NCBI GenBank assembly: GCA_022710975.1
Contig: JAKLGA010000001.1
Span: 1 to 64,000 of the forward strand
DNA length: 64,000 nt
Direction of reading: 5' to 3'
Source: Myxococcota bacterium
GTDB taxonomy: Bacteria > Myxococcota > B64-G9
In this document: positions 6,721 to 44,899 of the stretch, one piece after another
How positions within the stretch are numbered: position 1 is the first letter of the stretch
Layout: the number at the start of each line of letters is the position of its first letter
Notes under the pieces: model-generated
Database searches by the model: none
What the model was told of the DNA's origin: nothing
What the model saw: only the letters and a program-made list of their open reading frames with translations
Made by a program: the position numbers and the translations under genes

Positions 6721-6824
6721 CCAGACACCAGACACCAGGCACGGTGACGCCCTTGAACGGCCTGCTTCGTGCACCGTGCATGGTGCATCGTCCCTCGAAG
6801 CACCAAGCACTCAGCACCAAGCAC
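6721..6824 (-). repeat. Degenerate heptanucleotide array 3' of the aminotransferase gene
   Basis: Two blocks with strict 7-bp periodicity lie between convergent genes. In the sense of the minus-strand aminotransferase, 6824-6769 reads as eight heptads (GTGCTTG, GTGCTGA, GTGCTTG, GTGCTTC, GAGGGAC, GATGCAC, CATGCAC, GGTGCAC). The stretch 6741-6721 adds GTGCCTG, GTGTCTG and a GTCTG-type unit. It shares the GTGYNNG form with arrays at 22347, 37207 and 44865. Function unknown. Confidence 0.75.
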
Positions 6825-6829
6825 GATCC

Positions 6830-8020
6830 TCAACGCTTCGAGGTCGCCTCCTGGAAGGCCGCGCGCAGCGGCTCCAGGGCGCCCTCCACCTCGGCCATGC
6901 TGACGGAGTAGGACAGGCGCATGTGGCCGGTGCGGGCGAAGCCGCAGCCGGGCACGGCCAGCACCCGGTGCTTCTGGAGAATCCGGATGAAGGCCTGGTC
7001 GTCGGGGATGGGGGTCTGGGGGTACACGTAGAAGGCCCCCTGCGGCCGGGTGAACCGGTAGCCGATGTCCGCCAGGCCGGCGCACAGCCGGTCGCGCAGC
7101 GCCTGGTAGACGCCGATGTCCACCGCCGCGCTCTGCGTCTCCGCGGCCACCCGCTGGAAGAGCGCCGGCGCGTTCACGTAGCCGAGCGTGCGGTTGACGA
7201 AGGTGAGCGCGTCCGTGAGCTCGCGCCGATCCCGGTGCCGCGGGGAGATGGCCGCGTAGCCGATGCGCTCGCCGGCCAGGCCGAGGTCCTTGGAGTGCGA
7301 GGTCAGCAGCACCGTGTCCGGGTACGCGGCGAAGGGGTTGGGCGCCCTGGCCCCGTCGTACACCAGCTTGCGGTAGGGGTCGTCGGACAGCAGGGTGATC
7401 GTGTGGCCGGTCTTCTGCTCCCACGCCGCGAGCAGCGCGCCCAGCTCGGTCAGGCGCGCGGCGCTGTACATGCGGCCGGTGGGGTTGTTGGGCGAGTTGA
7501 TCAAGACCGCCTTGGTGCGCGGCCCGAACTGGGCCTCGAGGGAGGCCAGGTCGAGATCGAAGTCCGCGGCGCTCTCGGCCACCCGCAGCTCGCCGCCGTG
7601 GTTGTCCACGTAGAAGCGGTACTCGGGGAAGAAGGGCGCCACCACCACCACCTGATCGCCGGGATCGAGCAGCGACTTCAGCGCGATGTTCAGCGCCCCG
7701 GCCGCGCCGGTGGTCATGACGAGATCCGCGGCCTCGAAGGGCTCGGCGAACTCGTCCCGCAGGTAGGCGGCGATGCGCTCGCGGACCTCTGGGAAACCGG
7801 CGTTGGACATGTAGCGGTGCAGCCCCGGCTGGGGCTTCTCCAGCAGGCGGCGGATGGAGGCGTGCACCTGGGGCGGGGGCTCCAGGATGGGGTTGCCCAG
7901 GCTGAAGTCGAACACGTTCTCGGCCCCGAACTCCCGCCGCATCCGCACCCCCTCCTCGAACATCTTGCGGATGAAGGAGGCGTTCGTCATGAACTTCTGG
8001 ATCTTGGCGGAGATGGCCAT
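6830..8020 (-). CDS. Pyridoxal-phosphate aminotransferase, class I/II (aspartate/alanine type)
   Basis: This encodes 396 residues from the ATG at 8020 (MAISAKIQKFM); a longer upstream frame lacks support. Fold-type I landmarks are all present: TTGAAGALN at the cofactor phosphate site, the INSPNNPTGR loop, DDPYRKLVYD, and the Schiff-base lysine in SHSKDLGLAGERIGY. The C-terminal substrate-binding arginine is in MRLSYS. It belongs to the aspartate/alanine aminotransferase group, transferring amino groups between an amino acid and 2-oxoglutarate in the cytosol; exact substrate cannot be read off. It is divergent from metH, with 145 bp between them. Confidence 0.92.
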   Translation of the reverse strand: MAISAKIQKFMTNASFIRKMFEEGVRMRREFGAENVFDFSLGNPILEPPPQVHASIRRLLEKPQPGLHRYMSNAGFPEVRERIAAYLRDEFAEPFEAADLVMTTGAAGALNIALKSLLDPGDQVVVVAPFFPEYRFYVDNHGGELRVAESAADFDLDLASLEAQFGPRTKAVLINSPNNPTGRMYSAARLTELGALLAAWEQKTGHTITLLSDDPYRKLVYDGARAPNPFAAYPDTVLLTSHSKDLGLAGERIGYAAISPRHRDRRELTDALTFVNRTLGYVNAPALFQRVAAETQSAAVDIGVYQALRDRLCAGLADIGYRFTRPQGAFYVYPQTPIPDDQAFIRILQKHRVLAVPGCGFARTGHMRLSYSVSMAEVEGALEPLRAAFQEATSKR

Positions 8021-8117
8021 CCTTGCCTGTCCTTTCGCGTGTCGCGCACGCCTGGTTCCCTCATAGCCTCCGGCCGCAGGCGAGTCAACCCGGGCGAGGC
8101 CAGGGCGCGACCGCGCG

Positions 8118-8146
8118 TTGCCGGCGCCGGAATTCGGTGCTAGCTT
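8118..8146 (+). promoter_or_regulatory. Candidate promoter of the metH operon
   Basis: TTGCCG (8118-8123), 17 bp, TAGCTT (8141-8146), 20 bp before the metH ATG. The spacer contains no recognisable operator. No B12-box or other cobalamin riboswitch element is seen in the 145-bp gap. Confidence 0.45.
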
Positions 8147-8165
8147 GCCGCCTCGAGGAGGCGAG

Positions 8166-11100
8166 ATGGCCGATCTCCTGGCCCTGGCCCGCGAGCGGGT
8201 GCTGCTGCTCGACGGCGCCATGGGCACCGCCATCCAGGACCTGAGGCTCCCGGCCGAGGCCTTCGGCGCCCACGCGGGCTGCCTCGAGGCCCTGGTGCTG
8301 ACGGCCCCGGAGCGCGTGGCCGGGATCCACCGGGCCTACCTGGAGGCGGGCGCGGACCTCGTCGAGACCGACACCTTCGGCGCCAGCCCGCAGGTGCTGG
8401 GTGAGTTCGGCCTGGCCGGGCGCTGCGAGGAGCTGAACGAGGCCGCCGCTCGGCTGGCCCGCGTCGAGGCCGCGCGCCTGTCCTCGCCCGGCCGCCCGCG
8501 CTTCGTGGCCGGCTCCGTCGGCCCGGGCACCCGGCTCCCCAGCCTGGGGCAGGGCTCGTACGCCGAGCTGCGGGCGGGTTTCCGCCGGCAGATCGAGGGG
8601 CTGCTCGCGGGCGGGGTCGACCTCCTGCTCATCGAGACGGTCCAGGATCTGCTGCAGGCCCGGGCCGCCCTGGGCGCGGCCCGGGACGCCATGGCGGCCT
8701 CGCGGCGCGTGCCGTTGTGGGTGTCGGTGACGGTCGAGCCGGGCGGCAGCCTGCTGACCGGCTCGGACCTGGGCGCGGTGGTGGCGGTGCTGGAGCCGCT
8801 GGGGGTCGACGTGCTGGGGCTGAACTGCGGCACGGGCCCCGTGCCCATGCGCCCCCACCTCGAGGCGCTGGCGCGGACCTGGCCGGGGCTGCTGGGCGTC
8901 TACCCGAACGCCGGCCTGCCGCGGGCCTGCGCCGGCGGGGTGCGCTACCCCGAGGGGCCCGAGGAGCTGGCCGCCGCGCTGGCGAGCTTCCTCGACAGCC
9001 TGCCGCTCTCCTTCGTGGGCGGCTGCTGCGGCACCACGCCCGCGCACATCCGGCGGCTGGCCGAGCTGCTGGGCGGCCGCGCGCCCCGTCCGCGGCCCGC
9101 GCCCGAGCCGCGGCCGCAGCTCGCCAGCCTGTTCTCGGCCGTGCCCATCGCCCAGCAGCCCCCGCCGCTCTACATCGGCGAGCGGGCCAACGCCACCGGC
9201 TCGCGCGCCTTCCGCGACGCGCTGCTCGGCGGGGATCACCGGGCCGCCTTCGAGCTGCTCGACGCGCAGGCCGAGCAGGGCAGCCACGCGGCCGATCTGT
9301 CGGTGGCCTTCGCCGGGCAGGACGAGCCCCGGCACATGCGGGCGCTGGTGGAGCTGGCCGCGCGCGGCTGCCGGCTGCCGCTGGTCATCGACTCGAACAG
9401 CGTCGACGCCATCCAGCTCGCCCTGGAGCTCTACCCCGGCCGGGCGGCGGTGAACTCGGTCAACCTGGAGGACGGCGGCGCGCGCGCCGACCGGCTCGGG
9501 CCGCTGGCCCGCGAGCACGGCGCGGCGCTCATCTGCGGGTGCATCGACGAGCAGGGCATGGCCATGACCGCCAGGCGGAAGCTGGAGGTGGCCGAGCGCC
9601 TGGTGGAGCGCTGTGTGGGCCGCTACGGGCTGCGGCCCGGCGACCTGCTGGTCGATCCGCTCACCTTCACCGTGGGCTCGGGCGACGCCTCCCTGCGCGC
9701 GGCGGCCCAGGAGACCCTGGAGGGCCTGCGCCTCATCCGCGCGCGCCTGCCCGGGGTGCACACCCTGCTGGGGATCTCCAACGTCTCGTTCGGGCTGTCG
9801 GCCCGCAGCCGGCCGGTGCTGAACTCGGTGTTCCTCGAGGCCGCCCTGCGGGCCGGGTTGACGGCCGCCATCCTCGACCCCCGCCACATCCTGCCGCTGC
9901 CGTCCCTCCCGCCCGAGGAGGTCCGCCTGGCCGAGGCCCTGCTCCTCGACCGGCGCGACGGGGGGCGCGAGCCGCTGCAGGCCTTCGTCGAGCACTTCGC
10001 CGGCCGGCCGGCCGCGCCCGCGGCCGCGGAGGCCGCCGAGCTCGGCCCGCGCGAGGCGGTCTTCCAGGGCGTGCTGCACGGGCGCGGCTCCCAGGTGCTG
10101 GCCCGGCTACCGGCCCTGCTCGGGGAGCTCCCGGCCGGGGCGGTGCTGGACGAGGTGCTGCTGCCCGCCATGCGGAGGGTGGGGGAGCTGTTCGGCGCGG
10201 GCGAGCTGCAGCTGCCCTTCGTGCTGAAGAGCGCCGAGGCCATGAAGCTCGCGGTGGACGCGCTCCGCCCCAGGCTGGGGGCGGGCCGGCGCTCCGCGGA
10301 CCGGCCCCGCAGGCTGCTGCTGGCCACGGTGCGCGGGGACGTGCACGACATCGGCAAGAACCTGGTGGACATCATCCTGTCCAACAACGGCGTCGAGGTG
10401 CTGGATCTCGGCATCAAGGTGCCGGTCGAGACCATCGTGCGGCAGGCCCGCGAGCACGCCGTGGACGCGGTGGGCATGAGCGGGCTGCTGGTCAGCTCGG
10501 CCCTGGTGATGGCCGAGAACCTGCGGGCCATGAGCGATCAGGGCCTGCGCCTGCCGGTGCTGGTGGGCGGCGCCGCGCTGACGCCCGGGTTCGTGCGCGA
10601 CGTGCTGGCCCCCGCCTACCCGGGGGGCGAGGTCATCTACTGCGCGGACGCGTTCGACGGGCTGCGCGCCATGCAGCGCCTGGACGCCGGGGGGCCGCCG
10701 CCCGCGCCCGGCCCGGCGGTCGGCGCGGGGGAGCTGCCGCGCGACGCCTACCCGCCCGGGCCGCTCGCGCTGCAGGAGGTGACGCCGCCCCGGCCGCCCT
10801 TCCTGGGCAGCCGGGTGGTCGAGGACATCCGCCTGCAGGACGTGCTCGCCTACCTCAACCCGGTGGCCCTGGTGCGCGGCCGCTGGGGGTACCGGCGCGG
10901 CGGGCTCACGCGGGCGGAGTACGAGCAGGTGCTGGAGCGCGAGGTGCGGCCCCGCCAGGCGGCCCTGCTCGAGCTGGTCGCGCGGGAGGAGCTCTTCCGC
11001 CCGCGCCTGGTGTATGGCTTCTTCGAGGCGCGCGGCCAGGGCGAGCGGGTGCGGATCGCCGACGGCGGGCGGGAGCACGTGCTCGAGTTCCCGCGCCGGC

Positions 11101-11555
11101 GCCGCGAGCCGCGCCTGTGCCTGGCCGACTTCGTGCGCCCCGACGGCGACGTGCTCGGCCTGTTCGCGGTCAGCCTGGGCGACGAGGCCGTGCGCCGCGG
11201 GCGCCAGGTGCTGGCGCGCGACGGCTACCTGGATTACTTCCTGCTGCACGGGCTGGCGGTCGAGGCGACCGAGGCCCTGGCCGAGCTGGCCCACGCCCGG
11301 CTGCGCCAGGAGCTGGGCATCGGGGAGCCGCGCCCGCTCGGCTGGCAGGAGCTTGTCACCCAGCGCTACCGCGGCAGCCGCTACGGCTTCGGCTACCCGG
11401 CCGCGCCCGATCTCTCGGCCCACCGGCTGGTGTTCGAGCTGCTGCGGCCCGAGCGCATCGGGCTCGCGCTGGCCGAGGGCTTCCAGCTCGTGCCCGAGTA
11501 CGCTACCGTGGCCCTGGTGCTGCACCACCCCCAGGCCAAGTACTTCGCGACGTAG
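8166..11555 (+). CDS. metH: Cobalamin-dependent methionine synthase
   Basis: This encodes 1129 residues from the ATG after GAGGAGGCG. It transfers the methyl group of 5-methyltetrahydrofolate to homocysteine through methylcobalamin. The four modules are in the standard order. The homocysteine domain (1-300) has zinc ligands C221 and C287/C288 (GLNCGTG, GGCCGTT). The pterin-binding domain (about 320-610) has IGERANATGS. The B12 module (about 620-850) has D725-x-H727-x-x-G730 in DVHDIGKNL, where the histidine coordinates cobalt. The C-terminal reactivation domain (about 870-1129) includes RGRWGYR. The length is slightly below E. coli MetH (1227). It heads a methionine/folate operon with the next two genes. 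Confidence 0.95.
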   Translation: MADLLALARERVLLLDGAMGTAIQDLRLPAEAFGAHAGCLEALVLTAPERVAGIHRAYLEAGADLVETDTFGASPQVLGEFGLAGRCEELNEAAARLARVEAARLSSPGRPRFVAGSVGPGTRLPSLGQGSYAELRAGFRRQIEGLLAGGVDLLLIETVQDLLQARAALGAARDAMAASRRVPLWVSVTVEPGGSLLTGSDLGAVVAVLEPLGVDVLGLNCGTGPVPMRPHLEALARTWPGLLGVYPNAGLPRACAGGVRYPEGPEELAAALASFLDSLPLSFVGGCCGTTPAHIRRLAELLGGRAPRPRPAPEPRPQLASLFSAVPIAQQPPPLYIGERANATGSRAFRDALLGGDHRAAFELLDAQAEQGSHAADLSVAFAGQDEPRHMRALVELAARGCRLPLVIDSNSVDAIQLALELYPGRAAVNSVNLEDGGARADRLGPLAREHGAALICGCIDEQGMAMTARRKLEVAERLVERCVGRYGLRPGDLLVDPLTFTVGSGDASLRAAAQETLEGLRLIRARLPGVHTLLGISNVSFGLSARSRPVLNSVFLEAALRAGLTAAILDPRHILPLPSLPPEEVRLAEALLLDRRDGGREPLQAFVEHFAGRPAAPAAAEAAELGPREAVFQGVLHGRGSQVLARLPALLGELPAGAVLDEVLLPAMRRVGELFGAGELQLPFVLKSAEAMKLAVDALRPRLGAGRRSADRPRRLLLATVRGDVHDIGKNLVDIILSNNGVEVLDLGIKVPVETIVRQAREHAVDAVGMSGLLVSSALVMAENLRAMSDQGLRLPVLVGGAALTPGFVRDVLAPAYPGGEVIYCADAFDGLRAMQRLDAGGPPPAPGPAVGAGELPRDAYPPGPLALQEVTPPRPPFLGSRVVEDIRLQDVLAYLNPVALVRGRWGYRRGGLTRAEYEQVLEREVRPRQAALLELVAREELFRPRLVYGFFEARGQGERVRIADGGREHVLEFPRRRREPRLCLADFVRPDGDVLGLFAVSLGDEAVRRGRQVLARDGYLDYFLLHGLAVEATEALAELAHARLRQELGIGEPRPLGWQELVTQRYRGSRYGFGYPAAPDLSAHRLVFELLRPERIGLALAEGFQLVPEYATVALVLHHPQAKYFAT

Positions 11556-11569
11556 GGGCGGGAGGGAGC

Positions 11570-13402
11570 ATGGCGAGGAAGAGCCTGCGCGAGCTCGTCG
11601 AGGAGCGCGTGGTCCTGTTCGACGGGGCCATGGGCACCGAGCTCTACCAGCGCCACCAGTTCGTCAACGTGTGCTACGACCACCTGTGCGTCAGCGACCC
11701 GGAGCTGGTGCGGGCGGTCCACCAGGCCCATCGCCAGGCCGGCGCGGACGTGCTGACCACCAACACCTTCGGCGCCAACCGCAAGAAGCTGGAGGCCTTC
11801 CTGCTGGGCGATCAGGTGCGGGAGGTGAACCGCGCCGCGGCGTGCCTGGCCCGCGAGGTGGCCGGCGAGGAGCTGCTGGTGGCCGGCAGCGTCGGCCCGC
11901 TGGGGGTGCCCGTGGGGATCGGCGGCGTGCCCGAGGCCGAGGCCGAGGCCATGTACGCCGACGCCATCCAGGGGTTGCGGGAGGGCGGGGCGGACTTCGC
12001 CATCCTCGAGACCTTCGGGCGGCGGGAGGATCTGCTGGCCGCGGCCCGGGCCGCGACCCGGGTCGGGCTCGACTACCTGCCCTCCATCGCGGTGGACGAG
12101 CGCGGGCTGTCGCGCTTCGGCGAGACCATCGACGGCCTGTTCGCGCCCTTCCCGGCCGACCTGCCCGCCCCGCTCATGCTGGGCTTCAACTGCGGCGTGG
12201 GCCCGGCCGAGTGGCTGGAGCTGCTCGAGCGGCGCCTGCCCGGTCTGCCGTTCCCGGTGCTGGTGCAGCCCAACGCCGGCTTCCCCAAGCGGGTGGCCGA
12301 CCGCATGATCTACATGACCAGCCCCGAGTACTTCATGACCTACGCGCTGCACTTCGTGCAGCTCGGGGCGCGGGCGGTGGGCGGCTGCTGCGGCACCGGG
12401 CCGGACCACATCCGCGCGCTGGCGGCCGGGGTGAAGTCGCTGCACAGGCGCCGGGTTGAGATCGCGCCGGCCGCGGCCGCGGGCGTGGAGCTCAGCGAGC
12501 CGCACCCGCTCGAGCTCCGCTCGCGGCTGGCCTGGAAGCTCGCGCACGGGCAGTGGGTGACCCTGGTCGAGCTGGTGCCGCCGCTCGGCTACGACATGGC
12601 GCCCACCGTGGAGCGCGCCCGGCTGTGCGCCGTCCAGGGGGTGGACGCCATCAACGTGCCCGACGGGCCGCGGGCCTCCTCGCGGGTCAGCCCGCTCATC
12701 GCCGCTAGCCTCATCCAGGCGCAGGCCGGGGTGGAGGTGGTGCTGCACCTGTGCTGCCGCGATCGCAACATCCTGGGCATGCAGGCCGATCTCCTGGGCT
12801 GCGCCGCGGCCGGCATCCACAACGTGCTCATCATCACCGGCGATCCACCCAAGGTGGGCGACTACCCCTTCGCCACCGCGGTCTTCGACCTCGACTCGAT
12901 CGGCTTCACCCGCATCGCCGACCGGCTGAACCGCGGGGTGGACATCGGCGGCCACCCGGTCAAGCCGCCCACCCGCTTCCTCAAGGCCGTGGGCGTCGAC
13001 CCGTCCCACCTCGAGCAGGAGCGCGAGCTGGACCGCCTGGCCCGGAAGCGCGAGGCCGGCGCCGAGCTCGCCATCACCCAGCCGGTGTTCGACGCCGAGG
13101 TGCTGCTGCGCTTCGCGGAGCGCGCCCGGCCGCTCGGGCTGCCGCTGCTGGCCGGGATCTGGCCGCTGGCCAGCGCCCGCAACGCGGAGTTCCTGAACAA
13201 CGAGGTGCCCGGGGTCAAGGTGCCGGCGCGCGTGCTCGCGCGCATGGCCGCCGCCTCGGCCCGCGGCAAGGAGGCGGCCCGGGACGAGGGCGTGGCCATC
13301 GCCAGGGAGCTCCGCGACCAGGTGCGCCCGGCGGTGGCGGGCGTCCAGGTGAGCGCGCCGTTCGGCCACGTGGCCACCGCGCTCCAGGTGATCGCGCCAT
13401 GA
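11570..13402 (+). CDS. Homocysteine S-methyltransferase / methylenetetrahydrofolate reductase fusion
   Basis: This encodes 610 residues. Residues 1-290 form a second homocysteine methyltransferase barrel with zinc ligands C208 (GFNCGVG) and C273/C274 (GGCCGTG). Residues about 320-610 are an FAD-type 5,10-methylenetetrahydrofolate reductase with ITGDPPKVGDYP and AELAITQPVFDAEVL. The same fusion exists in Bacillus (YitJ type). The reductase half makes the methyl donor used by MetH encoded immediately upstream. The extra homocysteine domain may serve another methyl donor or act in methyl-group salvage. The stop overlaps the start of the rubredoxin gene (ATGA). Confidence 0.93.
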   Translation: MARKSLRELVEERVVLFDGAMGTELYQRHQFVNVCYDHLCVSDPELVRAVHQAHRQAGADVLTTNTFGANRKKLEAFLLGDQVREVNRAAACLAREVAGEELLVAGSVGPLGVPVGIGGVPEAEAEAMYADAIQGLREGGADFAILETFGRREDLLAAARAATRVGLDYLPSIAVDERGLSRFGETIDGLFAPFPADLPAPLMLGFNCGVGPAEWLELLERRLPGLPFPVLVQPNAGFPKRVADRMIYMTSPEYFMTYALHFVQLGARAVGGCCGTGPDHIRALAAGVKSLHRRRVEIAPAAAAGVELSEPHPLELRSRLAWKLAHGQWVTLVELVPPLGYDMAPTVERARLCAVQGVDAINVPDGPRASSRVSPLIAASLIQAQAGVEVVLHLCCRDRNILGMQADLLGCAAAGIHNVLIITGDPPKVGDYPFATAVFDLDSIGFTRIADRLNRGVDIGGHPVKPPTRFLKAVGVDPSHLEQERELDRLARKREAGAELAITQPVFDAEVLLRFAERARPLGLPLLAGIWPLASARNAEFLNNEVPGVKVPARVLARMAAASARGKEAARDEGVAIARELRDQVRPAVAGVQVSAPFGHVATALQVIAP

Positions 13403-13614
13403 AGGCGGACGCCGTGCCGCCCCCGGTCCCGGGGCCCGCGCTCGGAGAGGAGCAGGACGGGCGCTGGGTGTGCGTGAGCTGCGGTTTCATCTACGATCCG
13501 CGGCGCGGGGATCCGGCCCGGGGGTTCCCGGCCGGGACCGCCTTCGAGGCGCTCCCGGAGGGTTGGGTGTGCCCGCTGTGCTACTCATCCAAGGCGGCCT
13601 TCGACCGCTACTGA
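13399..13614 (+). CDS. Rubredoxin
   Basis: This encodes 71 residues. The ATG at 13399 overlaps the reductase stop (ATGA), indicating translational coupling. The iron-sulfur site is a complete Cys4 set: C25 and C28 (WVCVSCGF), then C58 and C61 (WVCPLCY). The rubredoxin core IYDPRRGDPARGFPAGTAFE lies between them. A proline-rich N-terminal extension of about 20 residues is longer than in classical 52-54-residue rubredoxins. It is a small cytosolic one-electron carrier. Its coupling to the methylenetetrahydrofolate reductase suggests it supplies electrons to that enzyme or to MetH reactivation; this is inference. Confidence 0.93.
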   Translation: MKADAVPPPVPGPALGEEQDGRWVCVSCGFIYDPRRGDPARGFPAGTAFEALPEGWVCPLCYSSKAAFDRY

Positions 13615-13627
13615 CAGGGAGGCTACG

Positions 13628-14494: not shown

Positions 14495-14506
14495 CGCGCC
14501 GGGCGC

Positions 14507-15490: not shown

Positions 15491-15587
15491 GGTTCGATGA
15501 TAGCCAGGCCTCCCCACGAGGGCAACTTCTGGCGGGACGGGCCGATCGGGCGGGGTCTGTGACGAGCTGGCGCGCGTTCGCTCCCTC

Positions 15588-15616
15588 TTGCCAGCAAGGG
15601 AAACCTCGTGCTAGGT
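15588..15616 (+). promoter_or_regulatory. Candidate promoter of the first ASH/VWA lipoprotein gene
   Basis: TTGCCA (15588-15593), 17 bp, CTAGGT (15611-15616). It is followed by an 84-bp leader and a GGAGG site before the ATG at 15700. Confidence 0.4.
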
Positions 15617-22346: not shown

Positions 22347-22402
22347 CGTGCGGCGTGCTGCGTGCGGCGTGCCCGGTTCCGGGCTCCAACTTCCAGGTTC
22401 CT
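22347..22402 (+). repeat. Degenerate heptanucleotide array after the second ASH/VWA gene
   Basis: Eight contiguous heptads follow 5 bp after the stop: CGTGCGG, CGTGCTG, CGTGCGG, CGTGCCC, GGTTCCG, GGCTCCA, ACTTCCA, GGTTCCT. The 7-bp period is kept while the unit changes from a GTGC type to a TTCC type. It lies in the sense orientation of the upstream gene, like the arrays at 6721, 37207 and 44865. Confidence 0.7.
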
Positions 22403-36522: not shown

Positions 36523-36543
36523 GGGCGCCGCCGGTCGCGCCCC
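36522..36543. terminator. Possible bidirectional stem-loop between convergent genes
   Basis: GGGGCG (36522-36527) pairs with CGCCCC (36538-36543) across a 10-nt loop in the 24-bp gap between two convergent genes. No T-run follows on either strand, so intrinsic termination is uncertain. Confidence 0.3.
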
Positions 36544-36546
36544 GGC

Positions 36547-37182
36547 TCACAGCCCCTCGATGGTCATGGCCCCGGTCTGCTTGTCGAGGCGGACGGCGAA
36601 CTCCACCGGGTCGTCCTGGCACCGGTTGGTGCAGTAGGAGTGCGTCCCGCGCAGCTCGATCCGGTAGGCGCCCGCGTCGTCCTGGACCGACCCCGGGCAC
36701 AGGCGCGCCTCGAGGTGCCAGTAGGTCTGGACGAGCTGCGACTCGACCAGGAAGCGGGCCAGGTCCGCGTGGCTGAGCCCCGCGGGCAACTTCTTCAGCG
36801 TGCCCAGGCTGGCCTGCGCGCCCTTGCCCAGGCGGGTGGCGTCCGGCCGCTCGAGGTCGCCGAAGTAGGCCGCCTCCACGTGCACCCGGCGGGCCTTGCG
36901 GTCGATGGCCAGCAGCGGCTTGCCTCCGGACACGTACCGGCTGAGGTGCTTGGGCACCTCGAAGTCCGGCCGCAGGGGGACGGCCTGGATGTGCTTGCCG
37001 GCCGACTCCTCCTCCGCGCTCGAGGTGTAGCCCTGCCAGGGGCTGTCCCCGCGCGAGATGACCCACGCCTGCTCGCAGTTGGCTGCCACGGCTTGCTCCT
37101 TGGGCTCCGGCGGCGCGCCGGCGCTCGCGCCCGAGGCGACGAGCGCGGCGGCCAGCCAGACGGCGGTGAGGTGCGTTCGCAT
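36547..37182 (-). CDS. Secreted protein of unknown function
   Basis: This encodes 211 residues with a strong AGGAGG site. A signal peptide spans residues 1-22 (WLAAALVASGASA). The mature protein has a KPLLAIDRKARRVHVEAAY beta-hairpin, a helical middle and a cysteine-containing end (LCPGSVQ, HSYCTNRC). I do not recognise a family. It lies 3' of the POR/diaphorase operon terminator, separated by the heptanucleotide array, so it needs its own promoter. A TAATGA near 37190 could be a -10, which would place the -35 within the repeat. Confidence 0.7.
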   Translation of the reverse strand: MRTHLTAVWLAAALVASGASAGAPPEPKEQAVAANCEQAWVISRGDSPWQGYTSSAEEESAGKHIQAVPLRPDFEVPKHLSRYVSGGKPLLAIDRKARRVHVEAAYFGDLERPDATRLGKGAQASLGTLKKLPAGLSHADLARFLVESQLVQTYWHLEARLCPGSVQDDAGAYRIELRGTHSYCTNRCQDDPVEFAVRLDKQTGAMTIEGL

Positions 37183-37205
37183 GTCCGTCCTCCTACCACC
37201 TCATT

Positions 37206-37256
<51 letters not shown>

Positions 37257-37257
37257 G

Positions 37258-37281
37258 AAAAAGCCCTCCCGGAGGAGGGCT
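37258..37281 (-). terminator. Intrinsic terminator of the POR/diaphorase operon
   Basis: On the reverse strand AGCCCTCC (37281-37274) and GGAGGGCT (37269-37262) form a perfect 8-bp stem with a 4-nt loop. It is followed by five T residues and then the TGTCTGG array. It lies 24 bp after the last stop codon of the operon. Confidence 0.9.
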
Positions 37282-37305
37282 TCGAAACACTCACGGCATC
37301 CCGGG

Positions 37306-38058
37306 CTACCGACAGTCGTTGCACACCTTGAAGTCCGACAGCTTCATGCCCACGCGCTTGCCGAGAGTCATGAGCTGGAAGGTGGGGGCGAAGGGCCGGC
37401 CGCACTTCTCGCACTTCTGCAGCGGCAGGTCGCGGTGCCACTTCTCGATGGTGCGGATCTCCGGGGTCTCCCGCAGGCCGATGCAGTGGGTCGGGCAGAC
37501 CTCGACGCAGGCGCCGCAGCCGATGCAGGCCTCGGCGGCCTCGTCATAGGGGGCGACCATGTCCTTGTGCGAGCCCCGGCCGGAGAAGGCGATGGCGTTG
37601 GCGCCCACCACCTCGGTGCACACCCGGGCGCACAGGCCGCACAGGATGCACTTGTTGTCCTTGGCCTCCTCGGACACCTTGTAGGGCGTCGAGTGCACGC
37701 CGTACTCGGCGGCCAGCGCGCGGACCTCCGGGGAGGCCGGGGCCTTGGCCAGCAGGAGCTGGAAGACGATCTTCCGGTTCTGCTGCACCGCGGGGGTGTC
37801 CAGGCGGACCTGCAGGCCGGCGGTGACCGGGAAGTTGCAGGAGGTGGTGATGCGGCTCTTGCGGCCCTTCTGCACCTCGACCAGGCACAGGCGGCAGGCG
37901 CCGTAGGTGCTGACCGCCTCGTGGAAGCACAGGGAGGGGACCTCGAAGCCGAGGCGCCGCAGCGCGCCGAGCAGGCTCTCGTGGTGGAAGCCCTCGCAGG
38001 CCCGGCCGTCCACCTGGAAGGTGATCTTGGCGCCCTTGGGCGTGTCTTCGTGGCTCAT
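37306..38058 (-). CDS. HoxU-like iron-sulfur subunit of an NAD(P)-linked oxidoreductase
   Basis: This encodes 250 residues. Residues 10-90 are a plant-type [2Fe-2S] ferredoxin (LCFHE, YGACRLCLVE, ITTSCNFP). The His/Cys-rich [4Fe-4S] box usual for HoxU/NuoG is missing, replaced by a plain helix (FQLLLAKAPASPEVRAL). Two [4Fe-4S] ferredoxin clusters follow: CILCGLCARVC and CIGCGACVEVCP. A distinctive C-terminal tail has two CxxC pairs (KCEKCGRPF and VCNDC), like a zinc ribbon. It relays electrons between the NuoF-like flavoprotein and a partner. It is the last gene of the operon and is followed by a terminator. Confidence 0.88.
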   Translation of the reverse strand: MSHEDTPKGAKITFQVDGRACEGFHHESLLGALRRLGFEVPSLCFHEAVSTYGACRLCLVEVQKGRKSRITTSCNFPVTAGLQVRLDTPAVQQNRKIVFQLLLAKAPASPEVRALAAEYGVHSTPYKVSEEAKDNKCILCGLCARVCTEVVGANAIAFSGRGSHKDMVAPYDEAAEACIGCGACVEVCPTHCIGLRETPEIRTIEKWHRDLPLQKCEKCGRPFAPTFQLMTLGKRVGMKLSDFKVCNDCR

Positions 38059-38068
38059 GGTGAGCTCC

Positions 38069-39955: not shown

Positions 39956-39959
39956 GGCG

Positions 39960-40418
39960 CTATTCCTGCTTGATCGGCTTGAGGACCCGATCCATCTTGC
40001 CTGCGTTCATGTTGCCGTGGTACTCGCCGTCCACGATGACCAGCGGGCCGAGGGCGCACGCGCCGACGCAGTTGACCGTCTCCAGGGTGAGCTTCATGTC
40101 GGCGGTGGTGTTGCCGGCCAGCACGTCGAACTCGCGCTGGATGTGATCCACCAGCCTGGGCGCGCCGCGCACGTGGCAGGCCGTGCCCATGCACACCGTG
40201 CACAGGTGCTTCCCGCGCGGCTTGAGCGAGAACGCGGCGAAGAAGGTGGCCAGGGCGTAGACGCGGGCCAGCGGCAGGTTCATCTCCGCGGCCAGCGCCT
40301 TCAGCGTCTCCTTGGGCAGCCAGCGCTCCTCCTTCTGGATGTCCATCAGGATGGCCAGCAGGTTGGCCGGATCGCGGTCGTGCTTCTCGATGATGCTCTT
40401 CAGCTTGGCGTCGTCCAT
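39960..40418 (-). CDS. NuoE/HndA-like [2Fe-2S] subunit
   Basis: This encodes 152 residues. A helical N-terminus (IIEKHDRDPANLLAILMDIQ) precedes a thioredoxin-like [2Fe-2S] domain. The four cysteines are present in LCTVCMGTACHVRGAP (spacing C-x2-C-x4-C with the first or second as ligand) and VNCVGACALGP. This is the 24-kDa subunit type that partners NuoF-like proteins in NADH dehydrogenases and bifurcating enzymes. It is 12 bp downstream of porB and 4 bp upstream of the flavoprotein gene. Confidence 0.92.
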   Translation of the reverse strand: MDDAKLKSIIEKHDRDPANLLAILMDIQKEERWLPKETLKALAAEMNLPLARVYALATFFAAFSLKPRGKHLCTVCMGTACHVRGAPRLVDHIQREFDVLAGNTTADMKLTLETVNCVGACALGPLVIVDGEYHGNMNAGKMDRVLKPIKQE

Positions 40419-40430
40419 GGGGGACCTCCC

Positions 40431-41360
40431 TCAGAGCACCAGGCCCTCGCGGCGCTCGAGCTTGCGGTACTCCTCCTCCACGCGCTTCTCGATCTCGGCG
40501 ACGGTGGCGTCGTCCAGGTGGCGGAAGCGGCCCTGGGGCTGGATGTACTCCTTGAGCGGCGAGAGCTTGGGGGTGGGCACGGTGATGTGGAGCTTGCCGT
40601 TCTCGACCTCGTACAGCGGGAAGACGCCGGTGCGGGAGGCCAGGCGGCCGATGGCGATGGCCAGCTCGGGCGCCATGCGCCAGCCGGTCGGGCAGCAGGC
40701 GTACACGTGCAGGTAGGCCGGGCCGTTGGCGGCCTGGGCCTTCCTCACCTTGGAGGCCAGGTCGAAGGGGAAGCTCGGGTTGACGGTCGCCACGTAGGGC
40801 ACGTTGTGCGCGGCGATGACCATCGGCATGTTCTTCTTCCAGGTCGACTGGCCGACGCTCAGGCTGCCCGCGGGCGAGGTGGTGGTGGAGGCCCCGAAGG
40901 GCGTGGAGCTCGAGCGCTGGATGCCGGTGTTCATGTAGGCTTCGTTGTCGTAGCACACGTAGATCATCTTGTGGCCGCGCTCCATGGCGCCGGACAGGGC
41001 CTGCAGGCCGATGTCGGCCGTGGCGCCGTCACCGCCCATGCCCACCACGGTGATCTTGCGCTTCGGCAGCTTGCCCTTCTTGACCAGGATCTTCAGCCCG
41101 GCCTCGACGCCGGAGGCGACCGCCGCGGCGTTCTCGAAGGCCACGTGCAGCCAGGGCACGGTCCAGGCCGTGTCCGGGTAGGAGGAGGAGATGATCTCCA
41201 TGCAGCCGGTGGCCGAGGCCACGATGGTGTTGCGCCCGAGCACGCCGTGGATCATGCGCACGGCCAGCGCCTCGGCGCAGCCCTGGCAGGCGCGGTGACC
41301 GGAGGCGAAGCGGTTTTCGGTGGGCCACAGCCGGGCCGCGAAGACGTTCAGCGACTCCAT
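40431..41360 (-). CDS. porB: Pyruvate (2-oxoacid):ferredoxin oxidoreductase beta subunit
   Basis: This encodes 309 residues. It binds thiamine diphosphate: the GDGATADIG motif starts the cofactor site and continues to YDNEAYMNTGIQRSSSTP, wording typical of pyruvate-specific PorB. Cysteines in ACQGCAEAL and ATGCME, with a third in YACCPTGW, are the ligands of the proximal [4Fe-4S] cluster. It catalyses CoA-dependent oxidative decarboxylation of pyruvate to acetyl-CoA, or the reverse. It lies 3 bp after porA with GAGGGAG as ribosome-binding site. Confidence 0.95.
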   Translation of the reverse strand: MESLNVFAARLWPTENRFASGHRACQGCAEALAVRMIHGVLGRNTIVASATGCMEIISSSYPDTAWTVPWLHVAFENAAAVASGVEAGLKILVKKGKLPKRKITVVGMGGDGATADIGLQALSGAMERGHKMIYVCYDNEAYMNTGIQRSSSTPFGASTTTSPAGSLSVGQSTWKKNMPMVIAAHNVPYVATVNPSFPFDLASKVRKAQAANGPAYLHVYACCPTGWRMAPELAIAIGRLASRTGVFPLYEVENGKLHITVPTPKLSPLKEYIQPQGRFRHLDDATVAEIEKRVEEEYRKLERREGLVL

Positions 41361-41363
41361 GGC

Positions 41364-42539
41364 TCACTCCCTCAGCCCGACGAGGACCGGGGCCGGCACC
41401 TTGCCGCTGCGCTTGGCCTCGAACAGGGCGTCGAACATCTTGTCGAAGTCGGTCACGGTCACGTCGCGGCCACCCAGGCCGGCCACGAACTCGACCACCA
41501 GGGGGTGGTCCTTGCGGCCGTACAGCGCGCCCTTGACCTCGCAGGCCACCGGGCCCACCGGGCCGCCGAAGGAGATGCAGCGATCGATCACCCCCAGCAC
41601 GGGGATCCGGCCGAGGGCCCGGAAGAGGTCCTCGAAGGGGAAGGGACGCCACAGGCGCAGCCGGACCAGACCCACCTTGTCGCCCTTGGCGCGGCGCTGG
41701 TCCACGGCCGTCATGGCCGTCTCGCCGATGGCGCCCATGGTCAGCAGCAGCACGTCCGCGTCGTCGCCCCGGTAGGTCTCGACGGGCTTGTACTGGCGCT
41801 TGAAGACCTTGGCGAACTCCCCCAGGGTCTCGACGATGGGCTGGTAGGCCTGGGTGAGCAGGTGCTGCTGGACCTGCTTGGCCTCGGTGAAGATGTCGGG
41901 GATGCCCACGGGCCCCATGCTGATGGGGTTGTCGATGTCCAGGCGCTGCAGCGGCTTGAACGGCGGCAGGAAGGCCTTGACCATCTCCCGGTCCGGCATG
42001 AACAGCGGCTCCACCATGTGGGAGACGATGAAGCCGTCGAAGTTGACCATGATCGGCAGGGACACGCGCGGATCCTCGGCCAGGCGGAAGGCCCAGATGG
42101 TGAGGTCGACGGCCTCCTGGCCGTTCTCGCAGAAGATCTGCACCCAGCCCACGTCGCGCTCGACCATCACGTCGGAGTGGTCGTTCCAGATGTTGATGGG
42201 GCCGGAGATGGCCCGGTTGGCCACCGACATCACGATCGGCAGCCGCAGGGCCGAGGCGATGTACAGGATCTCGTGCATGAGCGCCAGGCCCTGGGAGCTG
42301 GTCGCGGTGAAGGTGCGCGCCCCGGCCGCGGAGGTGCCGCAGCACACGCTCATGGCCGAGTGCTCGCTCTCCACCGGGACGAAGGCCGCGTCCAGGTGGC
42401 CGTCGGCGACCATCTCGGACAGGTGCTCGACGATGTGGGTCTGCGGGGTGATCGGGTAGGCGGCCACCACGTCGGCGTCGCAGAGGCCCACGGCCTCGGC
42501 GATGGCGATGGAGGCCTCGATGCCGATGCGCTTTTCCAT
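41364..42539 (-). CDS. porA: Pyruvate (2-oxoacid):ferredoxin oxidoreductase alpha subunit
   Basis: This encodes 391 residues from the ATG at 42539, which overlaps the porD stop by one base (TGATG). The N-terminus has the substrate/TPP-interface motif VVAAYPITPQTHIVEHLSE and PVESEHSAMSVCCG, followed by TATSSQGLALMHE, all characteristic of PorA. A C-terminal CoA/domain II region (ADVLLLTMGAIGETA) completes the protein. It forms the catalytic core with PorB. Confidence 0.95.
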   Translation of the reverse strand: MEKRIGIEASIAIAEAVGLCDADVVAAYPITPQTHIVEHLSEMVADGHLDAAFVPVESEHSAMSVCCGTSAAGARTFTATSSQGLALMHEILYIASALRLPIVMSVANRAISGPINIWNDHSDVMVERDVGWVQIFCENGQEAVDLTIWAFRLAEDPRVSLPIMVNFDGFIVSHMVEPLFMPDREMVKAFLPPFKPLQRLDIDNPISMGPVGIPDIFTEAKQVQQHLLTQAYQPIVETLGEFAKVFKRQYKPVETYRGDDADVLLLTMGAIGETAMTAVDQRRAKGDKVGLVRLRLWRPFPFEDLFRALGRIPVLGVIDRCISFGGPVGPVACEVKGALYGRKDHPLVVEFVAGLGGRDVTVTDFDKMFDALFEAKRSGKVPAPVLVGLRE

Positions 42540-42832
42540 CACTCCACCTCGTCCTGCATGCGGATGCAGCCGGTGGGGCACTCGTGCGGGCAGATGCCGC
42601 AGCCCTTGCAGTAGTCCAGGTCGGCCGTCGGGTAGCCGTCGGCCTGGAACTGGATGCAGCCCTCCGGGCAGAAGATGACGCACACGCCGCACTTCACGCA
42701 GTGCTCGTTCGTCCACACCGGCCGGGCCGAGCGCCAGTCGCCGGTCTTGGTGGCGCGGGAGCTGCCGGGGCAGGTGACCGCCGTGCCCACGGCCAGCTCG
42801 GTCCACTTGGGGCGCGCGTTCTGGTAGGCCAC
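42539..42832 (-). CDS. porD: Pyruvate:ferredoxin oxidoreductase delta subunit (dicluster ferredoxin)
   Basis: This encodes 97 residues. The two [4Fe-4S] motifs CVKCGVCVIFCPEGC and CKGCGICPHECPTGC occupy the C-terminal 55 residues. The N-terminal KWTELAVGTAVTCPGSS is the conserved PorD lead. It shuttles electrons from the PorAB active site to the acceptor. Located between porG and porA. Confidence 0.95.
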   Translation of the reverse strand: MAYQNARPKWTELAVGTAVTCPGSSRATKTGDWRSARPVWTNEHCVKCGVCVIFCPEGCIQFQADGYPTADLDYCKGCGICPHECPTGCIRMQDEVE

Positions 42833-42869
42833 GCTCGCAACCTCCTTGTCGTCTTCCGGGGCCGGCGCG

Positions 42870-43427
42870 TCAGACCGCGTCCTGGACCACGCACTCTTGC
42901 TGAGCGCGGCGGAAGGCGGCGATGTTCTTGGCCGCCAGGCGGCCGAAACGTTCCTCGAGGCGTTTCTCGATGCTCTCGGGCTTGACCAGCGGGAGCGCCG
43001 CCACGAGCGCGCCCAGCATGGTGGTGTTGGTGATGACCCGGCCGATCACCTCGCGGGCCACCTTGTTGGCGTCGATCACGCCCAGGCGGGACTTGAAGCC
43101 GAACAGCTTGCGCAGCTCAGCGATGCTCTTGGTGCTGTTGATGATCATGAGCCCGTCGGCCCGCAGGCCGTCGTCCACCTTGACCAGGCCGGGCAACGAG
43201 GGATCGAGCACCAGCACCACGCTGGGCGTGCGGACCGCGGTGCGGTCCCGGATGGGCTGATCGGACACCCGGGCGAACGCCCGCACCGGGGCGCCGCGGC
43301 GCTCGGGTCCGAAGGAGGGGAAGGAGCGGGCGTCCTTGCCCTCGTCGATGGCGGCCAGGGCGAGCAGCTCGGCCGAGGTCACCGCCCCCTGGCCGCCGCG
43401 TCCGTGGAAGGTGATTTCATGCATCAT
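42870..43427 (-). CDS. porG: Pyruvate:ferredoxin oxidoreductase gamma subunit
   Basis: This encodes 185 residues from tandem ATG codons at 43427/43424. GGAGG is 4 or 7 nt upstream respectively; the second is the better spaced. The CoA-binding subunit signature FHGRGGQGAVTSAELLALA is at the N-terminus, followed by FPSFGPERRGAPVRAFAR. The frame is open upstream to 43508, which would run through the promoter, so the short start is preferred. First gene of the seven-gene operon. Confidence 0.94.
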   Translation of the reverse strand: MMHEITFHGRGGQGAVTSAELLALAAIDEGKDARSFPSFGPERRGAPVRAFARVSDQPIRDRTAVRTPSVVLVLDPSLPGLVKVDDGLRADGLMIINSTKSIAELRKLFGFKSRLGVIDANKVAREVIGRVITNTTMLGALVAALPLVKPESIEKRLEERFGRLAAKNIAAFRRAQQECVVQDAV

Positions 43428-43479
43428 GAGGCCTCCGGGAGTCATGGACAGAAGCGGGAATCGGGCCAATGCCGCCCGG

Positions 43480-43508
43480 TTTGTACTGCCCGGAAACGCC
43501 CCTGTCAA
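43480..43508 (-). promoter_or_regulatory. Sigma-70 promoter of the porGDAB-diaphorase operon
   Basis: On the reverse strand TTGACA (43508-43503), 17 bp, TACAAA (43485-43480). The expected transcript begins near 43473, about 45 nt before porG. It is back-to-back with the mglB promoter. Confidence 0.7.
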
Positions 43509-43581
43509 CCAAAATCCCCGGCCGGCGCGGAGGCAGCGAACACCTTTTCGGCGCAGGGGAAGTCGGGCGCGGACAAATGGC

Positions 43582-43611
43582 TTGACACCCCTGAAACCGG
43601 GGTACTATAGT
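43582..43611 (+). promoter_or_regulatory. Sigma-70 promoter of mglBA, with palindrome in the spacer
   Basis: TTGACA (43582-43587), 18 bp, TATAGT (43606-43611), the best -10 in the window. The spacer contains the inverted repeat ACCCC-N7-GGGGT (43587-43603), a possible operator. A leader of about 105 nt precedes mglB. Confidence 0.75.
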
Positions 43612-43721
43612 GCGCTCGCCGTCGGCGTCGGCTCGCCTCCAAGCGGCGCAGTTCGAGCCGTGCACCGCCTGGAGTTGCACCTGGTCGGGCTTCGCCGGCA
43701 GGGTGGATTCGGGAGGGTCGG

Positions 43722-44204
43722 ATGGTCAGTCCCCAGATGGTGATGTACGAGGAGGAGTTCAACCAGATCAGCGCGATCTGTGATCGCCTGTGCCGTGAAG
43801 CGAACTCCAAGGTGGTCTTCCTGGTCGACAAGAACGGCCAGCTGATCGCCAGCGCCGGCGAGACCGAGAACCTGGACACCACCTCGCTCGCCTCGCTGAC
43901 CGCAGGCAACATCGCGGCCACCGGCGGCCTGGCCAAGCTGATCGGCGAGCGGGAGTTCTCGATCCTGTTCCACGAGGGCGAGAAGGACAACCTCCACATC
44001 TCCATCGTGGCGGGCCGGGTCATCCTGGTGGTGATCTTCGACGCGCGTTCCTCCCTGGGCCTGGTGCGCCTGCGGGTGAAGAAGTCCACCCTGGAGTTGA
44101 CAGGGATCTTCGAGAGGCTCCTTAAGAAGATCGAGGATCCGGCCGCGGGCTCCCCGTTCGCCGAAATCACGGACGAGGACATCGACAACCTGTTCAGCGA
44201 TTGA
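43722..44204 (+). CDS. mglB: MglB, roadblock/LC7-domain GTPase-activating protein of MglA
   Basis: This encodes 160 residues (159 in M. xanthus) with GGGAGG upstream. The roadblock fold has [38 protein letters not shown] and [19 protein letters not shown]. The C-terminal tail [18 protein letters not shown] is nearly that of the M. xanthus protein. MglB dimers stimulate GTP hydrolysis by MglA and set the rear pole in gliding cells. The gene overlaps nothing but sits 20 bp before mglA. Confidence 0.96.
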
Positions 44205-44224
44205 GCGCAGCCGAGGTCGCCGAC

Positions 44225-44812
44225 ATGTCCTTCATCAACTACTCCTCGCGCGAGATCAACTGCAAGATCGTCTACTACGGGCCCGGCCTGTGCGGGAAGA
44301 CGACCAACTTGCAGTACATCTATGCCAAGACCAACCCCGAGGCGAAGGGCAAGATGATCTCCCTCGCCACCGAGACCGAGCGCACGCTGTTCTTCGACTT
44401 CCTGCCGCTCAGCCTCGGCGAGATCCGGGGCTTCAAGACTCGCTTCCACCTGTACACCGTGCCCGGCCAGGTGTTCTACGACGCCAGCCGGAAGCTCATC
44501 CTGAAGGGCGTGGACGGCGTGGTGTTCGTGGCCGACTCCCAGATCGAGCGCATGGAAGCCAACCTCGAGAGCATGGAGAACCTCAAGGTCAACCTGCAGG
44601 AGCAGGGCTACGACCTGAAGCAGATCCCATACGTGGTCCAGTACAACAAGCGCGACCTGCCGAACGCGGCCACCGTCGAGGAGCTGTCCCGCCTGCTCAA
44701 CGCGGAGCGGGTGCCCGAGTTCCAGTCCATCGCCGCCACCGGCTGGGGCGTGTTCGACACCCTCAAGGCCATCGCCAAGCTCGTGCTGCAGGAGCTCAAG
44801 AAGGGCCGCTGA
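44225..44812 (+). CDS. mglA: MglA, Ras-like polarity GTPase
   Basis: This encodes 195 residues, exactly the length of M. xanthus MglA, from the ATG at 44225. The P-loop is [10 protein letters not shown] (G19 to N28), keeping the unusual Gly at the Ras position 12 equivalent. The switch region is in [18 protein letters not shown] (D-x-x-G replaced by TVPG, as in MglA). The base-specificity motif is YNKRDLPN (N141-K142-x-D144). In myxobacteria, MglA-GTP defines the leading pole and recruits the Agl/Glt gliding machinery. Such a machinery is encoded right downstream here. Confidence 0.97.
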
Positions 44813-44839
44813 GCCGTATCCGCTGCTGTGTCTTCCCGG

Positions 44840-44863
44840 GCCTCCCCACCAGGGAGGCTTTTC
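44840..44863 (+). terminator. Intrinsic terminator of mglBA
   Basis: GCCTCCC (44840-44846) and GGGAGGC (44852-44858) form a perfect 7-bp stem with a 5-nt loop, then TTTTC. It is immediately followed by a GTATCTG/GTGTCTG heptad array. Confidence 0.88.
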
Positions 44864-44864
44864 T

Positions 44865-44899
44865 GTATCTGGTGTCTGGTATCGTGTGTCGGGTTGGAT
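44865..44899 (+). repeat. Degenerate heptanucleotide array after the mglBA terminator
   Basis: Five heptads in sense orientation: GTATCTG, GTGTCTG, GTATCGT, GTGTCGG, GTTGGAT. It begins one or two bases after the terminator T-run, the same arrangement as at 37207-37281. Confidence 0.7.

What the first reader, a model, noticed from the sequence alone, without database searches (positions are those of the whole stretch)
6721..44899. A dispersed family of degenerate heptanucleotide arrays placed 3' of genes
Four intergenic sites (6721-6824, 22347-22402, 37207-37255, 44865-44899) show strict 7-bp periodicity with units of the loose form GTGYNNG. All are in the sense orientation of the gene just upstream, and none is inside a gene. 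Units differ between and even within sites (TGTCTGG, GTGCTTG, CGTGCGG, GTTCCAG-like), yet the period never slips. Heptanucleotide STRR repeats are established in filamentous cyanobacteria; I know of no defined role or matching description in Myxococcota. They could be 3'-end RNA elements, protein-binding arrays or a slippage-driven selfish repeat. Role is inference; the periodicity is directly visible.
Basis: partly seen in the sequence, partly recalled or inferred. Interest (0 to 1): 0.82.

Follow-up and report, generated by a model that had tools for sequence, protein, structure and literature searches.

The report
Paired seven-base repeats between genes
Short DNA stretches that repeat every seven bases, often as two mirrored copies facing each other, sit in gaps between genes in this bacterium and in unrelated ones; they keep the length of seven but not the sequence, which points to a copying habit of DNA rather than to a signal read by a protein.

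Summary
The four arrays are real. In 1.144 Mb of this 7.13-Mb genome, period 7 alone among periods 5, 7, 8, 10, 11 and 13 forms intergenic arrays in number (10 strong sites, 0 coding; the others 0, 1, 0, 0, 0). Here they favour gaps between convergent genes. The claimed sense orientation fails: single arrays between co-directional genes run 4 sense to 4 antisense here, 24 to 23 in loci of other phyla. The missed feature is inverted pairing: 16 of 34 array-bearing gaps hold two facing arrays, always GT-rich arm first; site 1 is one, and seven elements centre on GGTTTAAACC. In another genome (bin582) 28 of 60 arrays have an inverted partner (controls 1 and 1), with units differing between sites. 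At site 1 the 130-bp gap (85 bp array) is 0-5 bp in four of seven relatives; two near-identical loci elsewhere differ by whole 7-bp units. Period and pairing persist, sequence does not. I favour fold-back copying plus slippage by whole units over a binding site or terminator; fold-back is inferred and the step of seven unexplained. Heptamer excess in bacteria is known, and inverted arrays were noted in Geobacter and Xanthomonas. New variant of a known kind.

The parts
6715..6742 (-). Site 1, inner part: half-array of GT-type heptads (GTGCCTG, GTGTCTG, GTGTCTG, GTTGCGA), 15 bp from the stop of the + gene
6768..6824 (-). Site 1, main part: inverted pair of GTGC-type heptads facing each other around TCGAGGGACGA; 5 bp from the stop of the - gene
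   Evidence: (hairpin drawn, z -2.0, 11 of 200 shuffles fold as well)
3694..6699 (+). Gene left of site 1: S41 peptidase with PDZ domain
6830..8020 (-). Gene right of site 1: class I/II aminotransferase, convergent with the S41 gene; next gene 0-5 bp away in four of seven relatives
22347..22372 (+). Site 2: CGTGCGG-CGTGCTG-CGTGCGG-CGTGC, 5 bp after the stop of the + gene
22373..22402 (+). Site 2 continuation: degenerate heptads of GGTTCCG type
   Evidence: read by eye
37206..37256 (-). Site 3: GTGTCTG x 7.3, perfect, single orientation, between two - genes (37306-38058 upstream, 36547-37182 downstream)
37258..37282 (-). Intrinsic-terminator-like hairpin with T-run directly upstream of site 3 on the - strand
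44865..44892 (+). Site 4: GTATCTG-GTGTCTG-GTATCGT-GTGTCGG; below the lag-7 threshold used, found by unit profile
44840..44863 (+). Intrinsic-terminator-like hairpin GCCTCCC-CACCA-GGGAGGC with T-run, directly upstream of site 4
   Evidence: by eye; stem drawn in the fold

Best explanation
These are neutral or nearly neutral, self-copying intergenic heptad arrays. Proposed course: an array is born in a gene junction when a DNA 3' end folds back and copies itself, giving two inverted arms (inferred from the pairing); arrays then gain and lose whole 7-bp units by slippage or unequal exchange (shown for one pair of near-identical loci); units drift by point mutation and re-amplify, so sequence changes while the period does not (shown by the variants); purifying selection removes them from genes, and in this genome they gather at convergent 3' junctions (distribution shown, cause inferred). 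Lone arrays are half-elements or arrays that never paired. Why the step is seven is not explained here; the published suggestion is a polymerase contact length. No sequence-specific protein and no role in RNA 3' ends is needed.
For: Period 7 stands out: own 1.144 Mb, strong sites 10 intergenic / 0 coding, against 0, 1, 0, 0, 0 intergenic at periods 5, 8, 10, 11, 13 (period 14, its double, 7); at the weaker threshold 11 intergenic and 4 coding, against 0.35 intergenic in a Markov-2 null. bin582, 200 kb: 52 intergenic and 7 in predicted genes at period 7; intergenic at periods 5, 6, 8, 9, 10, 11, 13: 0, 0, 4, 2, 0, 0, 3. Inverted partners: bin582 28 of 60 arrays against 1 reversed and 1 complement-only control, direct partners 8; other phyla, 219 arrays, 18 array-sides at score 14 or more against 0 and 2 (a pair can count from both sides). 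Sequence not kept: 39 consensus classes among 72 arrays of bin582, many one change apart. Gain of DNA: next gene 3, 0, 2 and 5 bp away in four relatives, 130 bp here, 85 bp of it array. Whole-unit change: L065 and L079, aligned flanks 95-99% identical, differ by one 7-bp unit in each of two neighbouring blocks. No covariation between arms of the 7 TTTAAA palindromes: 1.61 mismatches per paired unit against 1.68 +/- 0.19 re-paired (28 paired units, low power).
Against: The fold-back step was not seen. Slippage alone does not predict seven rather than five or six. CACCAGA x3 exceeds its reversed form 69 to 4 stretches in viral contigs and GTGGCTG x3 44 to 13, though GGTTCCA x3 is 9 to 13; plain slippage would not care about letter order. 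The fixed polarity of pairs in this genome (16 of 16 by the strict count; 17 of 18 by a laxer one) and the narrow alphabet GTRKCKR of the TTTAAA palindromes suggest copying between loci or descent from one element. In bin582 arrays also stand in 8 of 23 divergent gaps, so 'kept away from promoters' is not general. At the site-1 junction G002 has a 198-bp gap without array and two of seven relatives gave no second gene, so the tight state may not be ancestral.
Confidence: 0.5

Rival explanations
1. Selected 3'-end RNA elements: hairpins after the stop codon that end or protect transcripts, two-way at convergent genes.
For: Convergent gaps hold arrays more often, here (8 of 57) and in bin582 (13 of 24); one TTTAAA pair folds strongly (L232, z -6.6); in bin582 array blocks begin within 8 bp of a stop codon in 25 of 52 cases against 12.0 under uniform placement, and in gaps of 100 bp or more single arrays within 10 bp of a stop are 16 of 46 against 2.9 expected, of a start 3 of 54.
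Against: No strand bias of single arrays; arms do not covary; arrays directly after a detected terminator 1 of 44 here and 1 of 71 in bin582, and sites 3 and 4 follow a ready-made terminator; in this genome nearness to stops equals the uniform expectation (17 of 48 against 16.6); no array at the same junction in the four relatives with a 0-5 bp gap nor in G002; arrays in 8 of 23 divergent gaps of bin582.
Confidence: 0.19
2. Protein-binding arrays (a regulator or nucleoid protein reading tandem 7-bp sites), as proposed for the paired tandem repeats of Geobacter metallireducens.
For: Paired tandem sites on opposite strands resemble regulator sites; units of the TTTAAA palindromes here keep G, T and C at positions 1, 2 and 5 (59, 59 and 57 of 59 units).
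Against: In bin582 neighbouring sites use different units in the same architecture; in this genome GTGTCTG-, GTGC- and GTTCC-type units share it; 0 of 121 divergent gaps of the own sample hold an array; GTRKCKR x3 is absent from 190 of 194 other genomes of the phylum.
Confidence: 0.12
3. A mobile or template-copying element: a polymerase, reverse transcriptase or transposase that lays down heptads and moves between genomes.
Against: Units change within one array; no target duplications seen by eye in the palindromes; no common gene was sought; the reversed control profile also occurs in 10 of 195 Myxococcota and 9 of 296 genomes of the Paludibacter phylum (real profile 15 of 296 including the preselected one), so many heptads make arrays.
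Confidence: 0.11

Closest known systems
Long simple sequence repeats of prokaryotes with heptanucleotide excess (a 2007 survey, seen only as cited in passages of PMC4692102 and PMC4679880; the author name Mrazek for it is recalled)
   Same: Heptamers the most abundant long-unit class in most genomes, very uneven between genomes
   Different: The passages I saw do not mention inverted pairing or convergent-junction placement
Geobacter metallireducens class 1-4 sites, class 3 being heptanucleotides (PMC2700814, passages and supplement legends read)
   Same: Tandem short repeats described as mostly in pairs, on opposite strands at variable distance; class 3 has five tandem heptanucleotides
   Different: One fixed consensus per class (class 3 MTYCTGA), read as global-regulator sites; here units vary from site to site
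GGGAATC / GGGGATT repeats of Xanthomonas and Nostoc (PMC4692102, passages read)
   Same: Dispersed, degenerate, intergenic heptamer arrays; some inverted, an example at convergent genes; length and sequence vary between related species
   Different: G-quadruplex-forming GGG runs define them; GTGTCTG and the GTGC units of the window lack these
TAACTGA repeats of Beggiatoaceae, cyanobacteria and Bacteroidetes (PMC4679880, passages read)
   Same: Intergenic heptamer arrays, phylogenetically scattered
   Different: One fixed unit, in the main genome mostly just upstream of start codons, with one indirect repeat beside 169 direct sets
Cyanobacterial STRR sequences
   Same: Tandem heptanucleotides, as recalled
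   Different: Not compared here
Borg tandem repeats (PMC9879509, passages read)
   Same: Fast-evolving tandem repeats that vary in unit number
   Different: Perfect copies of longer units, about half inside genes

Membership tests
Prokaryotic long simple sequence repeats, heptamer class | Tandem units of 5-11 bp above chance, period 7 dominant | tested here: met
Prokaryotic long simple sequence repeats, heptamer class | Mainly outside genes when the unit is not a multiple of three | tested here: met
   (10 intergenic / 0 coding at the strong threshold, 11 / 4 at the weaker); but 3 of 8 distinct G155 loci shown lie in predicted genes
Geobacter metallireducens paired tandem-repeat sites | Pairs on opposite strands at variable distance | tested here: met
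Geobacter metallireducens paired tandem-repeat sites | Class 3 consensus MTYCTGA | tested here: not met
   units compared by eye
Intrinsic terminators | Stem-loop followed by a U-run | tested here: not met
   1 of 44 arrays here directly after a detected terminator; sites 3 and 4 lie after, not in, a terminator; no T-run after the stems of the palindromes, by eye
TAACTGA repeats | Unit TAACTGA | tested here: not met
   window units and own units differ
G-quadruplex heptamer repeats | GGG or GGGG in every unit | tested here: not met
   by eye
Cyanobacterial STRR | Specific STRR units | not tested
   unit lists not at hand
Rfam families | Match at the gathering score | tested here: not met
   none in the window
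Integron attC sites (considered because palindromes cluster in C17, C21 and C23) | Conserved core site and cassette genes | not tested
   GTTTAAAC does not fit the core GTTRRRY as recalled; no search made

The most novel reading that the evidence does not exclude
A sequence-free genomic element: bacteria in many phyla carry one and the same process that writes DNA in steps of seven bases and folds it into inverted pairs at gene junctions, so period and palindrome are inherited while letters are not. It would be a DNA-synthesis signature (fold-back plus a seven-base realignment step of a polymerase or a telomerase-like enzyme), and the dominance of heptamers in bacterial repeats would be its trace.
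Probability: 0.22. Interest if true: 0.8.

Novelty: new variant of a known kind. Interest (0 to 1): 0.5.

Why it matters
Why long-unit repeats in bacteria are mostly heptamers has been noted since a 2007 survey and has, in the passages I saw, only a suggestion for an answer. Showing that the arrays often come as inverted pairs, keep period but not sequence or strand, and change by whole units moves the question from 'what binds them' to 'what copying step makes them', and gives genomes (this one, bin582, the Paludibacter pair of loci) in which that can be tested. For annotation it warns against reading such arrays as regulator sites merely because they are repeated.

Tried and rejected
Sense-strand RNA element: rejected as a general account, no strand bias (one search counts arrays and does not set paired ones aside). 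Terminators: rejected as a general account. Selection for pairing arms: no covariation (7 palindromes, 28 paired units, low power). Stop-codon pinning: looked strong in the raw list but equals uniform expectation in this genome (17 of 48 against 16.6) and in G155 (2 of 7 against 1.9); only bin582 exceeds it. A universal GTRKCKR grammar: rejected, the reversed control profile is about as widespread. Universal unit preference: two of three units tested exceed their reversed form in viral contigs, the third does not. Avoidance of divergent gaps: holds in the own sample (0 of 121) but not in bin582 (8 of 23), and 3 of the 34 own gaps are divergent (all targeted); on re-reading I therefore lowered the main explanation from 0.52 to 0.50 and the RNA rival from 0.20 to 0.19. 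Protein downstream of site 3 (36547-37182): no match in 8 relatives, so site 3 could not be compared. Relatives G003 and G004 gave small contigs and 11 of 20 wider Myxococcota stretches asked for did not exist; neither set was analysed for arrays, so array density in other Myxococcota is known only through patterns. Flagellimonas (200 kb) has few arrays (7 intergenic; gaps with one: 3 of 85 co-directional, 1 of 30 divergent, 0 of 14 convergent) and 1 of 7 with an inverted partner, so pairing and convergent bias are not seen there.

Limits: gene positions come from a simple codon-bias caller written here (first run), not from curated annotation; for G155 and the relatives it used this genome's codon table. 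Array scores are +1 per lag-7 match and -1.5 per mismatch. Arrays holding N were dropped, and gaps holding N. Targeted own loci were fetched by GT-type patterns, so they say nothing about array frequency.
Full report
CHECK. The four sites are present. Tandem Repeats Finder reports period 7 at 6720-6742, 6763-6791, 6798-6824, 22347-22372 and 37206-37256 (it also lists five short period-7 rows elsewhere in the window, at 9365, 31462, 36186, 62530 and 63222); site 4 is missed by it but fits the unit profile. In a lag scan of the window the four lag-7 segments at the main threshold are all intergenic. The whole genome holds 18 overlapping matches to CACCAGACACCAGA with no reversed-control match, 26 to GTGYNNGGTGYNNGGTGY against 1 and 79 to GTRKCKR x3 against 0.

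IS PERIOD 7 SPECIAL? In 1.144 Mb of the own genome (886 predicted genes, 91 kb intergenic) strong arrays (score 13 or more) number 10 intergenic and 0 coding at period 7; intergenic counts at periods 5, 8, 10, 11 and 13 are 0, 1, 0, 0 and 0. Periods 6, 9, 12 and 15 are mostly coding, as expected of multiples of three. At score 11 there are 11 intergenic and 4 coding against 0.35 intergenic in a Markov-2 null. In 200 kb of bin582 (CP070698.1) there are 52 intergenic period-7 arrays at score 14 (7 more in predicted genes), against 0, 0, 4, 2, 0, 0, 3 at periods 5, 6, 8, 9, 10, 11, 13. Among 116 loci fetched from other genomes because they hold the ACCAGAC array, gaps without that array show period 7 in 43 cases, period 8 in 8 and periods 5, 6, 9, 10, 11 in 1-5 each; those genomes are preselected.

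WHERE. In the unbiased own sample 8 of 57 convergent, 5 of 357 co-directional and 0 of 121 divergent gaps hold an array at the looser threshold. bin582: 13 of 24, 21 of 84 and 8 of 23; Flagellimonas: 0 of 14, 3 of 85 and 1 of 30. In the other-genome loci the index arrays follow the baseline (46 co-directional, 14 convergent, 5 divergent gaps out of 352, 87 and 59). So convergent enrichment holds here and in bin582, and avoidance of divergent gaps holds only in the own sample. Distance to stop codons is what uniform placement gives here (17 of 48 gaps of 8 bp or less, expected 16.6); in bin582 it is 25 of 52 against 12.0.

ORIENTATION. The sense rule fails. Of 34 array-bearing gaps of this genome (unbiased plus targeted), single arrays in co-directional gaps are 4 sense and 4 antisense, with 1 unclassed. 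In other phyla it is 24 and 23. In convergent gaps either strand is sense to one of the genes, which explains most of the impression.

INVERTED PAIRS. Listing the sites showed arrays facing each other, for example GTGTCTGGTGTCTGGTATCGGGTGTCTGGTTTAAACCAGACACTAGACACCAGCCACCAGACAC (L232). GGTTTAAACC occurs at 7 places in 7.13 Mb, each at the centre of such a pair; its reversed control occurs nowhere. GTGC-type arrays pair around ATCGA- or TTCGA-like centres (by eye), among them site 1. Requiring two tandem units on each strand, 16 of 34 gaps hold a pair, all with the GT arm first; a laxer rule gives 18, of which 17 GT-first. Partner test: own targeted loci 16 array-sides at score 14 or more against 0 reversed and 2 complement-only; other phyla 18 against 0 and 2. 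In the unbiased own sample alone it is 2 against 0 and 0. In bin582 28 of 60 arrays have an inverted partner in the same gap against 1 and 1, and 8 a direct one; the arms can sit up to 718 bp apart. As a yardstick, the reverse complement of an array's unit is met in another, randomly drawn array-bearing gap at a rate of 9.8 per 60, because units recur. In Flagellimonas 1 of 7 arrays has a partner.

CHANGE OVER TIME. At site 1 the next gene (by my caller) is 3, 0, 2 and 5 bp away in G005, G003, G007 and G004; in G002 it is 198 bp away without array; G006 and G008 gave no second gene. By eye the facing frame ends in G003, G004, G005 and G006 resemble the S41 gene end; that of G007 does not clearly. 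Here the gap is 130 bp, 85 bp of it array. L065 (Paludibacter sp.) and L079 (a Bacteroidetes bin), aligned flanks 95-99% identical, differ by exactly one ACCAGAC unit and one GACTGGA unit in two neighbouring blocks. L104 and L113, 87% identical, differ in number and order of unit variants. Within the 7 TTTAAA palindromes units fit G-T-R-K-C-K-R; paired arms match no better than re-paired ones.

SPREAD. GTRKCKR x3 is in 5 of 195, notably G155 with 22 matches of mostly GTGGCTG units, three of whose eight distinct loci shown lie inside predicted genes. Reversed-profile controls occur in 10 of 195 Myxococcota and in 9 of 296 genomes of the Paludibacter phylum, where the real profile is in 15 of 296. 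So many heptads form arrays, and different genomes hold different ones. Still CACCAGA exceeds its reversed form 69 to 4 in viral contigs and GTGGCTG 44 to 13, while GGTTCCA does not (9 to 13). I cannot explain the unit preference.

MECHANISM. What is kept is the period and, in several genomes, inverted pairing; what is not kept is sequence, strand, and presence between relatives. That argues against a sequence-reading protein and a strand-specific RNA signal, and for a copying process limited by what selection tolerates. Change by whole units is directly supported by L065/L079; the fold-back origin of pairs is inferred; the step of seven is unexplained. PMC4692102 and PMC4679880 (passages read) report an earlier suggestion that seven bases is the stretch contacted by DNA polymerase.

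KNOWN KIND. Heptamer excess in bacterial repeats is published (as cited in PMC4692102 and PMC4679880; the 2007 survey itself was not read). Paired tandem repeats on opposite strands, with a tandem heptanucleotide class, are in the supplement legends of PMC2700814, read there as regulator sites. PMC4692102 mentions inverted heptamer repeats, one example at convergent genes. [quoted passage not shown] The listings of my searches for heptanucleotide or heptamer repeats with Myxococcus or Myxococcota and for inverted heptamer arrays at convergent genes showed no paper presenting this architecture as general; most subscription papers are outside that library.

Noticed in passing
L182 (G000:C24:145001-165000), 4041, 11214, 12838: A dispersed repeat of about 40 bp (caggcctcgaggggtaggggcaagaggcctcagtca and variants) precedes a GGAACNN heptad array three times; looks like a small repeated element carrying an array.
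   Followed up: no
L178 (G000:C21:10001-19685), 9504-9685: A TTTAAA palindrome stands beside AT-richer sequence that opens a frame resembling, by eye only, an insertion-sequence helix-turn-helix, right at the contig end.
   Followed up: no
bin582 stretch L336-L345 (joined), for example 160949 and 161695: Inverted heptad arrays stand near the two ends of gaps up to 785 bp, that one holding further arrays inside; possible nesting, or a missed gene bracketed by arms.
   Followed up: partly
window 53013-53357: A 345-bp array of 27-bp units inside an open frame; looks like an ordinary protein repeat.
   Followed up: no
L107, about 5265-5540 (bin Yes70-08): A 273-bp mosaic heptad array mixing CACCAGA, CACCGGA and CACCACT units.
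   Followed up: no
G000 contigs C17, C21, C23: All seven GGTTTAAACC-centred palindromes lie in three contigs, each group within about 8 kb, suggesting local spread or one split island.
   Followed up: partly
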